Positions 25,756 through 28,515 of a stretch of 64,000 bases of DNA are shown piece by piece; the stretch's first letter is position 1; each line of letters begins with the position of its first letter. Location of the stretch: contig NZ_CP049056.1 of the NCBI RefSeq assembly GCF_011044155.1, positions 992,001 through 1,056,000 on the forward strand, read 5' to 3'. The notes below the pieces were generated by a model. It was not told the DNA's origin, searched no databases, and was given only the letters and a program-made list of their open reading frames with translations. A program made the translations under genes and the position numbers. Source of the stretch: Pikeienuella piscinae. Its GTDB lineage: Bacteria > Pseudomonadota > Alphaproteobacteria > Rhodobacterales > Rhodobacteraceae.

Positions 25756-27096
25756 TTACTGCACGACCACAACAACGCGCCGGTTCGCCTCTTCGCGCCG
25801 GCAGACCGCGCCCGGCTTCACCGCCGGCGCGCTTGCGCCGAGCCCGACGAGCTTGAACCGGCGGCGATCGTTCAGCGCGGCCTCGTCGAAGCCGCGCTCT
25901 ATCAGCGCCGGGCGGATGATATCGCTGAAAACCGCCCGGGCGCGGGCGCTGGAAACCTCCTTGTTGTCCCGGCTTGAGCCGACGCAATCGGCGTGCCCGC
26001 TGAGTTGAATGCGCAGCGGCTCGCCGGGGTCCCGTTTCGCCAGCTCCGTCAGCAGCGCCGCGATCTGCGGGTCGTCCTCACGCGGAGTAAGGCGATTGAA
26101 GTCGAAATGGATCTGGAAGACCCGCGGCGGCGGCAAGCTGCTGGAGCGTTCGACGGCGCCGCTGAGACGCGGCGCCGCGGCGAGGTCCTCGGGGAAGAAA
26201 TCCACCTCTTCGCCCTCGCTTCCGTCGGAATCGAGTTGCGCCGCCGCCAGCACCCGGTCCAGCACGATCTCGCCGCCTTCCGCATCCTGCACCACGAGCC
26301 GGCCGGATTTCTCCGGATCATCCAACTCCGGCAGAAGGAAGATCAGGTTGTCCTTCAGCGCGAACGTCTTCGACCCTTCCTGCGCCGCGTGAAACCGATG
26401 GCAATGGTAGGGAATGCCGCCGTAATCCACCGCTCCCGGCGCAATCTGGTGGCCCTCAAGCTGTTCTCGCGCCCAGCGGTGATAAGAGACCTGCACCGTC
26501 GCGAACCAGTCCGGCGCACGCCGCAACGAACCGGGGAAACTCACCGCGTCGACCACGCCGCCACGCTGCTGGCTCAACGCCAGTTCAGACGTCTCCAGCG
26601 CGTCGCAATAGGCGGGATTGCTCAGATCGACCGGCGCCAGCGACTCGGGCTCGCCGCCATCGAGATGATCGAAGACCGGAACCAGCGGGGAAACGCCGTT
26701 CTCCGATGGTGGATTGGAGGCGGCCATGCTTGCCGCTTCGAGGAATTCTGCGGCGGTCGCCCAGTCGAACTCCTCACGCTCTTCGGCGGCGCCCTGGACA
26801 TATTCGCAAATCAGCGCCTTGCGGAACGGCCAGAGCGGATCGCCATTCCTCATTGTGGTCGCCTCGGCGCGGACATCCACAAGCGCGGCCTCGCGCGCGG
26901 CGTCCGTCGGGGCCGGCCCGTCGCCGTCGAGCGACGCGCGAAGCGCCGCCATGTGAATGCACCAGGGATCATCCGCCGCGACACCCAGCGCCGCGCGCCG
27001 CGCCGCCGGATCCCATGGATCCAGCGTCGTCTCCGGCGCCATTCCGCATCCGCCCGCGAGAAGCGCGAGCGCCAGTCCCCCCCACCTGATCATCAT
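25756..27096 (-). CDS. OmpA-domain lipoprotein
   Basis: A 446-aa outer-membrane lipoprotein. The signal peptide ends in the lipobox LAGGC (Cys17). Residues 20-310 form a domain I do not recognise, with scattered cysteines and a long acidic part. Residues about 325-446 are an OmpA/MotB-type peptidoglycan-binding domain: IHFDFNRLTPRED, LSGHADCVGSSRDN, then EANRRVVVVV. It is the last gene of a four-gene operon with an RsbW-like kinase, a STAS protein and a FecR-domain protein, one base behind the last. This suggests an envelope-linked signalling or structural module. Either ATG, 27096 or 27093, could start it. Confidence 0.82.
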   Translation of the reverse strand: MMIRWGGLALALLAGGCGMAPETTLDPWDPAARRAALGVAADDPWCIHMAALRASLDGDGPAPTDAAREAALVDVRAEATTMRNGDPLWPFRKALICEYVQGAAEEREEFDWATAAEFLEAASMAASNPPSENGVSPLVPVFDHLDGGEPESLAPVDLSNPAYCDALETSELALSQQRGGVVDAVSFPGSLRRAPDWFATVQVSYHRWAREQLEGHQIAPGAVDYGGIPYHCHRFHAAQEGSKTFALKDNLIFLLPELDDPEKSGRLVVQDAEGGEIVLDRVLAAAQLDSDGSEGEEVDFFPEDLAAAPRLSGAVERSSSLPPPRVFQIHFDFNRLTPREDDPQIAALLTELAKRDPGEPLRIQLSGHADCVGSSRDNKEVSSARARAVFSDIIRPALIERGFDEAALNDRRRFKLVGLGASAPAVKPGAVCRREEANRRVVVVVQ

Positions 27097-27097
27097 G

Positions 27098-27616
27098 CTA
27101 TTTCGCCCTTATCACGATCCTCGTCCCGGTCACCGCCAGATTGGTGTCGTTGCGTATCTTGACACTCATCCGGTCGGCTCCGCTCTTGGCGACCTCGCCC
27201 GCGGCGACCGAGACCACGCCGCGGCCCAGCCGCATACGAAATTCTCCGGTTCTTTCGGCGGCCTTGTAGACGTAGGTCGAGATTTCGACGCAGGTGTCGG
27301 CGACGCCGGAGATCGTCGTGTTATCGGTGAAAATCGCGTCGAATCCGCCGTTCGCGCCGGTCGCCACCGCGTCCGCGGCGTAAAGGTCCATGCCGACTTC
27401 GGCGTCCAGCTCGTCGAAGCCGCCGGATTTCGGGCGCAGGACCTTCACCTGCCCCTCGACCCGCTTCACGAAGCCGACCGTTTCCGCTCGCCGCGACGCC
27501 GCGGCGGCGTCCTCAGCCGGGATCTCAACCTGGCAAAGGCTCTTCACGTTCTGTGCGGAGACGCCGGGCGCCATGGTCGCGACGACGATTCCTGCGATGA
27601 TGACGGTGCTTTTCAT
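27098..27616 (-). CDS. Secreted FecR-domain protein
   Basis: A 172-aa exported protein with signal peptide about 1-21 (IIAGIVVATMAPGVSA). The rest is one FecR domain: GFVKRVEGQVKVLRP near 48-62, DAVATGANGGFDAIFTDNTT near 83-102, RMRLGRGVVSVAAGEVAK near 127-144, ending with VTGTRIVIRAK. Unlike iron-uptake FecR proteins it has no anti-sigma domain and is free in the periplasm. It overlaps the STAS gene by four bases and touches the OmpA lipoprotein gene, so a shared envelope job is likely. The ligand is unknown. Confidence 0.8.
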   Translation of the reverse strand: MKSTVIIAGIVVATMAPGVSAQNVKSLCQVEIPAEDAAAASRRAETVGFVKRVEGQVKVLRPKSGGFDELDAEVGMDLYAADAVATGANGGFDAIFTDNTTISGVADTCVEISTYVYKAAERTGEFRMRLGRGVVSVAAGEVAKSGADRMSVKIRNDTNLAVTGTRIVIRAK

Positions 27617-28008
27617 GTCTTTCCCCTTCGCCCCGCGTCACGCTCGGCCTTGAGCGCCGCCAGAGCCTGATCGATATCGGGATAATGCCGGACGAAAGGG
27701 GCGAATTTCAGCACGCCGCCAACCAGTTCGCCGCCCCCAGCCGCCACAATTCGCGCACCGTGCGTTTCAAGCTCCATATGCGCGGTCCGAAGCGTGCGAA
27801 GCGCGGTCGAGGAGAAGAGGACGACGCCGGACAGATCGACAACGACATCCGTCGCGCCCCCCTCTTCCATCGCCATCTCAACAGCCCTGCGAAGCGCGGC
27901 GCTCAGCGCCGTTAAACTGTCGGCGTGATAGTGACTGGCGCCGAAGAGCACGACGACCGCGCCCTCTTCGCGCCGAAGGGTGAACGGGAAACTCCCCCCG
28001 GCGGTCAT
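27613..28008 (-). CDS. STAS-domain anti-sigma factor antagonist
   Basis: A 131-aa single STAS domain, the type that binds an anti-sigma kinase when unphosphorylated. The phospho-acceptor Ser lies in VVLFSSTALRTLR near residue 70; DVVVDLSGV is the preceding strand. The ATG at 28008 lacks its own ribosome binding site but is overlapped by the stop of a 12-codon leader frame that has a strong one (see 28005-28043). A TTG at 28035 is in frame but lies 17 bases from that site. The next upstream gene encodes an RsbW-like ATPase, completing two parts of a partner switch. Confidence 0.8.
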   Translation of the reverse strand: MTAGGSFPFTLRREEGAVVVLFGASHYHADSLTALSAALRRAVEMAMEEGGATDVVVDLSGVVLFSSTALRTLRTAHMELETHGARIVAAGGGELVGGVLKFAPFVRHYPDIDQALAALKAERDAGRRGKT

Positions 28009-28043
28009 GGGCAAGCCGCCGGAGCGCGCGCGCAATCGCCCAT
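28005..28043 (-). promoter_or_regulatory. 12-codon leader frame coupled to the STAS gene
   Basis: AAGGAGG lies 9 bases before an ATG at 28043 that opens a 12-residue frame (MGDCARAPAACP). Its TGA overlaps the STAS ATG as ATGA, so STAS synthesis probably depends on re-initiation. It may be a true leader peptide or the sign of a lost longer N-terminus. Confidence 0.5.
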
Positions 28044-28092
28044 TTCTCGCTTCCTCCTTCCGGTCCGGTCAAGCTTACGCCGTATTTTCGGC

Positions 28093-28515
28093 TCAATCCA
28101 CATCGTGTTCACGGTGCTTACGGACCGAGAAGGTGGTCACGTTCCGCCCCGATTCGCGCTGGTAGGTAAGCTCGTCCGCGAAGGCGAGAACCATGGTCAG
28201 CCCCCGCCCGCCGAGCGCGTATTCTTGCGGCCGGGAGACGTCGCGCGGGGCGCGCGGATCGAAGCGCGGGCCGCGCGCGCTGATTCGGAGCGTGAGGTCG
28301 CGCTCGTCGGTCCAGACCTCGACCGTTATGTCGGGCGCCTCCTCACGCATGGCGCCATGAACGAGCGCGTTGGCCGCAAGTTCATCGAGCGCGAGGCCGA
28401 TACGGAGCGACTGACTCTGATCCGCGCCATCGGCGGAGCAAAACGCCTCCGCCGCCGCCGCCGCCTCGGCGACTTCGGTCAGCGTCTCGCCTATGCGCCG
28501 GCTCAGCCGAGCCAT
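28093..28515 (-). CDS. RsbW-like ATP-binding protein (serine kinase/anti-sigma)
   Basis: A 140-aa HATPase_c_2 protein of the anti-sigma kinase class, probably phosphorylating the STAS partner encoded next. The N-box reads ALDELAANALVHGA near 42-55 (Glu and Asn for Mg-ATP) and the G-box ALGGRGLTMV near 100-109. No membrane span. First gene of the operon. No PP2C-type phosphatase or sigma factor lies in the window, so the rest of the switch is encoded elsewhere. Confidence 0.82.
   Translation of the reverse strand: MARLSRRIGETLTEVAEAAAAAEAFCSADGADQSQSLRIGLALDELAANALVHGAMREEAPDITVEVWTDERDLTLRISARGPRFDPRAPRDVSRPQEYALGGRGLTMVLAFADELTYQRESGRNVTTFSVRKHREHDVD

What the first reader, a model, noticed from the sequence alone, without database searches (positions are those of the whole stretch)
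25756..28515. Partner-switch proteins in one operon with FecR-domain and OmpA-domain envelope proteins
An RsbW-like kinase, a STAS antagonist, a secreted FecR-domain protein and an OmpA lipoprotein lie in one direction; the last three genes overlap or touch. Partner switches normally control a sigma factor or a cyclic-nucleotide or phosphatase output, none of which is present here. The link of a cytoplasmic switch to two exported proteins suggests either envelope-stress output or a secreted scaffold whose amount is set by the switch. The N-terminal 290 residues of the lipoprotein are unrecognised. The pair is in reverse order to the rbaV-rbaW switch I recall from Rhodobacter.
Basis: partly seen in the sequence, partly recalled or inferred. 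Interest (0 to 1): 0.65.

Follow-up and report, generated by a model that had tools for sequence, protein, structure and literature searches.

The report
Envelope-sensing partner switch, split across genome
Four neighbouring genes that looked like an odd mix of an internal on/off switch and two cell-envelope proteins turn out to be most of one signalling pathway, whose missing membrane part lies elsewhere in this genome and sits beside the same kinds of genes in other bacterial families; the envelope proteins are therefore more likely the pathway's sensor side than its product.

Summary
In detail: an RsbW-like kinase, a STAS protein, a short secreted FecR-domain protein and an OmpA-family lipoprotein lie in one direction at 28515-25756. 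The arrangement is kept in all four held species of the genus; its FecR was found in only 1 of 393 sampled genera of the family. The genome holds one SpoIIE-type PP2C phosphatase, a CHASE2-PP2C about 282 kb away. In four other alphaproteobacterial families its full-length relatives sit in one cluster with STAS, an MBL-fold hydrolase, a short OmpA lipoprotein and a short FecR protein; in three of these an RsbW-like kinase is also there. The window's FecR groups with those FecRs (100/100), its lipoprotein shares their pre-OmpA module, and its PP2C nests in the cluster clade. Published FecR-CHASE2 clusters carry a cyclase or histidine kinase, so FecR follows the CHASE2 sensor. Best model: lipoprotein and FecR act on CHASE2, PP2C dephosphorylates STAS, STAS engages the kinase; the target is unknown. 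It is not RbaVWY. The kinase's adenine-contacting Asp is Ala in all four species, so kinase activity is doubtful. I found no description of this cluster in the papers searched.

The parts
28093..28515 (-). RsbW-like HATPase_c_2 (anti-sigma-kinase type) protein, 140 aa; N-box E45/N49 and G2 box GGRG kept, G1-box Asp replaced by Ala80
   Evidence: PF13581 E 1.1e-19; A80 invariant in 4 species; aligned to SpoIIAB; acidic residue at this place in the other kinases
27613..28008 (-). single-domain STAS protein, 131 aa; candidate phospho-acceptor Ser67 in LFSSTALRTL
   Evidence: STAS E 3.5e-6; aligned to SS[VAI]GLRAL of the related clusters
27098..27616 (-). secreted protein, signal peptide plus one FecR domain, 172 aa
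   Evidence: FecR E 5e-4; groups 100/100 with the FecRs of CHASE2-PP2C clusters
25756..27096 (-). OmpA-family lipoprotein, 446 aa: lipobox Cys17, genus-specific region ~20-240, pre-OmpA module ~245-325, OmpA domain ~328-446 with the Asp370/Arg385 positions that bind peptidoglycan in this family
   Evidence: OmpA E 4e-6; OmpA C-domain structures; module E 2.9e-6; D and R invariant

Best explanation
The four genes are the cytoplasmic and outer-envelope parts of one trans-envelope partner switch. Its membrane component is the genome's only SpoIIE-type phosphatase, a CHASE2-PP2C encoded at G000:C1:733346-735568, about 282 kb away. Proposed working: the OmpA-domain lipoprotein, tethered to outer membrane and peptidoglycan, and the periplasmic FecR-domain protein set the state of the periplasmic CHASE2 domain. 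CHASE2 controls the cytoplasmic PP2C, which dephosphorylates the STAS protein at about Ser67. Unphosphorylated STAS binds the RsbW-like protein, and one of the two acts on a target not yet identified. Shown by computation: gene content, conservation, grouping of the window FecR, PP2C and lipoprotein with cluster proteins, and the catalytic residues of PP2C. Inferred: the order FecR/OmpA to CHASE2, dephosphorylation of STAS, and the existence of a downstream target. Doubtful: that the RsbW-like protein of this genus is still a kinase.
For: One SpoIIE PP2C in the genome, fused to CHASE2; one clear stand-alone RsbW-like protein; two STAS domains by Pfam STAS, one of them in a SulP-like transporter by inspection. 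Full-length CHASE2-PP2C relatives exist in other alphaproteobacterial families: of 12 loci read, 10 have STAS just upstream and 11 have an MBL hydrolase there (one a fragment at a contig end). In 5 loci of 4 families OmpA lipoprotein plus short FecR lie head-on to the PP2C gene, and in 4 loci of 3 families an RsbW-like kinase is in the cluster. Window FecR joins the 5 cluster FecRs at 100/100, apart from 15 others including 4 of its own genome. Window PP2C nests in the cluster PP2C group at 100/98. The lipoprotein shares the pre-OmpA module, E 2.9e-6 against at best 5.9 for shuffles. PP2C Asp524, 542, 669, 721 and 722 are invariant. In species G003 the distant PP2C, STAS and the lipoprotein's start are all broken, while neighbours at both loci are intact. 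FecR-CHASE2 clusters with other outputs are published: CHASE2 histidine kinase (PMC5192318) and CHASE2 adenylate cyclase (PMC9239204). In S. meliloti an outer-membrane protein, NsrA, acts upstream of CHASE2 cyclases (stated in PMC13001267).
Against: In this genus the CHASE2-PP2C is not next to the four genes, so the link rests on other families and on co-occurrence. The kinase tree does not firmly join the window kinase to the cluster kinases. The G1 Asp is lost. An MBL homologue was found but in another context. Seven of the 12 related loci lack FecR/OmpA beside the PP2C gene, some of them at contig ends. No expression or interaction data exist.
Confidence: 0.7

Rival explanations
1. One reading: the switch is upstream, and FecR and the OmpA lipoprotein are its output (envelope-stress response or a secreted scaffold whose amount the switch sets).
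For: Overlapping genes allow co-regulation; both exported proteins are co-transcribed with the switch by inference.
Against: No transcription factor or sigma factor in the set. In the five related loci with OmpA/FecR, these lie on the strand opposite to MBL-PP2C, so they are not simply the tail of that operon. FecR accompanies CHASE2 with three different outputs (PMC5192318, PMC9239204), which fits input rather than output.
Confidence: 0.12
2. The RsbW-like protein of this genus no longer phosphorylates STAS. The switch works by binding alone, or another kinase phosphorylates STAS, and CHASE2-PP2C still supplies the envelope input. (A variant inside the best explanation, not exclusive of it.)
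For: Adenine-contacting Asp of the G1 box is Ala80 in all four species; it is Asp in the four cluster kinases and Asp or Glu in the rest of the aligned set. This Asp is needed for ATP binding in GHKL ATPases (general knowledge).
Against: N-box and G2 box are intact and the STAS serine is kept, which suggests phosphorylation still occurs; conserved PP2C aspartates suggest a phosphate is still there to remove.
Confidence: 0.3
3. It is the Rhodobacterales RbaV-RbaW-RbaY system in rearranged form.
For: Same kind of proteins, same family of bacteria; RbaVW also have no known sigma target (PMC3999984).
Against: RbaY is a REC-PP2C (PMC3999984), while the only PP2C here is CHASE2-PP2C. Fifteen family kinases form their own group at 92/93 without the window kinase. 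The STAS of those members have DSSGLG, the window has FSSTAL. Gene order is opposite.
Confidence: 0.04
4. Two unrelated gene pairs that happen to be neighbours.
For: 84 bp between kinase and STAS; FecR of this type found in only one sampled genus of the family.
Against: Kept in four species, and the same components cluster in other families.
Confidence: 0.03

Closest known systems
BiofilmReg operon of Burkholderia (response regulator, LysM-FecR protein, CHASE2 histidine kinase, DUF4136 lipoprotein; PMC5192318)
   Same: FecR-domain exported protein plus CHASE2 membrane receptor plus lipoprotein-type protein as the periplasmic side
   Different: Output is a two-component phosphorelay; here it is a PP2C with STAS and an RsbW-like protein, and the lipoprotein is OmpA-type
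CHASE2 adenylate cyclase - FecR clusters (Campylobacterota, PMC9239204; S. meliloti CyaD1/CyaD2/CyaK with NsrA, PMC13001267)
   Same: FecR or outer-membrane protein paired with a CHASE2 receptor; signal runs from envelope to cytoplasm
   Different: Output is cAMP. This genome also has such a pair separately (L096: FecR, TPR, CHASE2 cyclase)
RbaV-RbaW-RbaY of Rhodobacter capsulatus (PMC3999984)
   Same: STAS protein, RsbW-like kinase and unlinked PP2C, no sigma factor beside them
   Different: REC-PP2C instead of CHASE2-PP2C, no envelope proteins, gene order reversed, different kinase group
SiaABCD of Pseudomonas aeruginosa (PMC7647112)
   Same: Membrane PP2C with a partner-switch pair; NCBIfam SiaA is among the best models for the PP2C part (far below its cut-off)
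   Different: No CHASE2, FecR or OmpA part is known to me there, and no SiaD-type cyclase lies beside the genes here
RsbU/RsbV/RsbW of Bacillus
   Same: Logic of phosphatase, antagonist and kinase
   Different: No sigma factor here; sensor is a periplasmic CHASE2 domain

Membership tests
Partner-switching (Rsb-type) module | STAS protein with phosphorylatable Ser/Thr | tested here: met
   Ser67 aligned with the SS motif of related STAS
Partner-switching (Rsb-type) module | GHKL Ser/Thr kinase with N, G1 and G2 boxes | tested here: not met
   N and G2 boxes present, G1 Asp is Ala80 in all four species
Partner-switching (Rsb-type) module | PP2C (SpoIIE-type) phosphatase with catalytic Asp residues | tested here: met
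   single SpoIIE-type gene in the genome, unlinked; Asp residues invariant
Partner-switching (Rsb-type) module | STAS binds the kinase in a phosphorylation-dependent way | not testable with these tools
   needs interaction assays
RbaVWY of Rhodobacterales | REC-PP2C phosphatase | tested here: not met
   only PP2C is CHASE2-PP2C
RbaVWY of Rhodobacterales | kinase groups with RbaW-type kinases of the family | tested here: not met
   15 family kinases form a group at 92/93 without it
RbaVWY of Rhodobacterales | gene order STAS then kinase | tested here: not met
   kinase then STAS; STAS then kinase in most other family members examined
FecR-CHASE2 envelope signalling modules | secreted FecR-domain protein | tested here: met
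FecR-CHASE2 envelope signalling modules | CHASE2 receptor encoded next to FecR | tested here: not met
   in this genus the CHASE2 gene is about 282 kb away; adjacent in 5 related loci
CHASE2-PP2C cluster of Alphaproteobacteria (described here) | PP2C, FecR and lipoprotein related to the cluster forms | tested here: met
CHASE2-PP2C cluster of Alphaproteobacteria (described here) | MBL-fold hydrolase between STAS and CHASE2-PP2C | tested here: inconclusive
   a homologue of the subfamily exists at about G000:C1:954749-955580, lacking part of the N-terminal region and in another context; about 40% of the genome scanned
FecI-FecR cell-surface signalling | FecR as transmembrane anti-sigma with adjacent ECF sigma and TonB-dependent receptor | tested here: not met
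   the protein shows a cleavable-type signal peptide only; none of the adjacent genes scanned is a sigma factor or TonB receptor

The most novel reading that the evidence does not exclude
Alphaproteobacteria use an undescribed trans-envelope partner switch in which a peptidoglycan-bound OmpA lipoprotein and a periplasmic FecR protein gate a CHASE2-PP2C phosphatase. In this genus the RsbW-like partner has become a non-ATP-binding pseudokinase, so the switch state is set by the envelope-controlled phosphatase and by binding rather than by its own kinase.
Probability: 0.25. Interest if true: 0.75.

Novelty: new variant of a known kind. Interest (0 to 1): 0.62.

Why it matters
Periplasmic inputs to partner switches in Gram-negative bacteria, and the role of FecR-domain proteins beside CHASE2 receptors, are poorly understood. 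If the model holds, it gives a defined pathway from outer membrane and peptidoglycan to a STAS/RsbW switch, with its components named and a clear order of action to test. It also makes FecR a general periplasmic partner of CHASE2 sensors, whatever their output.

Tried and rejected
AlphaFold of the whole lipoprotein with 4 sequences gave pLDDT 48, and of residues 236-446 with 8 sequences 61.5, with only the OmpA domain confident. No fold search was run, because a low-confidence model would give meaningless matches. Sequence search of solved structures found nothing convincing for the FecR protein or STAS. Plasmid records hold no relative of the lipoprotein and no full-length CHASE2-PP2C. One scan of the named genome collection found only the three sister species already held, all metagenome assemblies. 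Rejected: membership in RbaVWY, chance neighbourhood, and FecI-FecR type signalling. Considered and left open: the MBL hydrolase as effector. It is the steadiest neighbour of the CHASE2-PP2C gene in other families, but its place in this genome is unclear.

Full report
OBSERVATION. The four minus-strand genes are at the stated places: kinase 28515-28093 (140 aa), STAS 28008-27613 (131 aa), FecR protein 27616-27098 (172 aa) and lipoprotein 27096-25756 (446 aa). STAS and FecR overlap by 4 bp, FecR and lipoprotein are 1 bp apart, and kinase and STAS are 84 bp apart. Pfam supports HATPase_c_2, STAS and OmpA; FecR scores below Pfam's cut-off. The flanks are unrelated metabolic genes: HpaI-type aldolase and FAA hydrolase upstream, XdhC and a GST downstream.

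CONSERVATION. The window lies at 992001-1056000 of a 4.37 Mb single-contig genome, whose nearest named relatives are Rhodobacteraceae or Alphaproteobacteria metagenome assemblies. The four genes occur together in the same order in all four held species of the genus. A FecR profile of this type found no other bearer among 394 genomes of 393 genera of the family.

WHERE THE MISSING PARTS ARE. The genome has one SpoIIE-type PP2C, one clear stand-alone RsbW-like protein (the next hits that were read look like histidine kinases) and two STAS domains by Pfam STAS, one of which is in a SulP-like transporter by inspection. The PP2C is a CHASE2-PP2C of 741 aa at G000:C1:733346-735568, beside genes that look like QmcA and NfeD by inspection and with no FecR neighbour. 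Among 61 relatives a full-length match was seen only in the genus: full in G000 and G001, a fragment in G002, broken in G003; the other genomes give PP2C-only or CHASE2-only matches.

THE DECISIVE COMPARISON. A class-wide search found CHASE2-PP2C relatives of about 700-760 aa in other alphaproteobacterial families. Twelve of these loci were read. Ten have STAS just upstream of the PP2C gene, and eleven have an MBL-fold hydrolase there (one a fragment at a contig end). Five loci from four families (G475; G679 and G587; G673; G487) have an OmpA lipoprotein of about 205 aa and a short FecR protein of about 150 aa head-on to the PP2C gene. Four of those five also have an RsbW-like kinase in the cluster. 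In G475 the order is STAS, MBL, CHASE2-PP2C, then OmpA and FecR on the other strand, then kinase.

IS IT THE SAME SYSTEM? FecR: the four window-type FecRs and the five cluster FecRs form one group at 100/100, apart from 15 other FecR domains including four from this genome. PP2C: the window type nests inside the cluster group at 100/98, together with one further PP2C (G556) and apart from 19 other PP2Cs. Lipoprotein: a profile of the region before the OmpA domain, built from cluster lipoproteins only, finds the window lipoprotein at E 2.9e-6 and its two sisters at 1.5e-5 and 2e-4, while 300 shuffles give at best 5.9. This assigns residues about 245-325; residues about 20-240 remain genus-specific and unknown. 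Kinase: it is outside the RbaW-type group of its own family, but its exact place is poorly supported. In species G003 the distant CHASE2-PP2C has two in-frame stops and a frameshift, STAS has an in-frame stop and the lipoprotein start is out of frame, while neighbouring genes at both loci are intact. Joint decay of unlinked genes supports one pathway, though it rests on one metagenome assembly.

MECHANISM. Shown: the components, their grouping and intact PP2C aspartates. Inferred: FecR and the peptidoglycan-type OmpA lipoprotein act on the periplasmic CHASE2 domain. The reason is comparative: FecR accompanies CHASE2 with a histidine kinase (PMC5192318), with adenylate cyclase (PMC9239204; also this genome's L096, and FecR lies beside a CHASE2 gene in loci L102, L103 and L104) and with PP2C (this work). 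What stays constant is the sensor pair, not the output. In S. meliloti an outer-membrane protein, NsrA, lies upstream of CHASE2 cyclases (PMC13001267). PP2C would then dephosphorylate STAS and shift its binding to the RsbW-like protein. The final target is unknown, as for RbaVW (PMC3999984).

DEPARTURE. The Asp of the kinase G1 box, which contacts adenine in GHKL ATPases (general knowledge), is Ala80 in all four species. It is Asp in the four cluster kinases and acidic throughout the rest of the aligned set. The STAS acceptor serine and the other kinase boxes are kept. Whether this protein still phosphorylates STAS is open, and a standard partner-switch label should carry that caveat.

KNOWN OR NEW. 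It works like a partner switch with a FecR-CHASE2 front end. It is not RbaVWY (PMC3999984). Searches of the held library for CHASE2 together with STAS, SpoIIE or partner-switching found no description of this combination. That library lacks most subscription papers, so absence there is not proof. Rating: new variant of a known kind.

Noticed in passing
window 28093-28515: G1-box Asp of the RsbW-like protein is Ala80 in all four species of the genus, although the other kinases examined keep an acidic residue; a candidate pseudokinase.
   Followed up: partly
L054 7255-8700 and L101 8647-10838 (species G003): STAS, the start of the lipoprotein and the unlinked CHASE2-PP2C are all interrupted, while neighbouring genes are intact: apparent joint decay of the pathway in one species.
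   Followed up: partly
L096 3746-14001 (G000:C1:105745-116000): A second FecR protein with a TPR protein, near a CHASE2 guanylate/adenylate cyclase and what look like two-partner-secretion genes: a parallel FecR-CHASE2 module in the same genome.
   Followed up: partly
L224 10750-11580 and 15154-15621: MBL-fold hydrolase of the same subfamily as in the clusters, a few genes from what looks like a cyclic-nucleotide-binding protein; possible dispersed member or a paralogue.
   Followed up: partly
L164 4270-5944: Two STAS domains in tandem upstream of the MBL gene in cluster G475, so one switch may have two antagonists.
   Followed up: no
L069 5939-9572: In G000 the CHASE2-PP2C gene follows genes that look like QmcA (SPFH) and NfeD and precedes an ABC-F-like gene; the QmcA-NfeD neighbourhood is kept in G003, so this position is probably ancestral in the genus.
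   Followed up: partly
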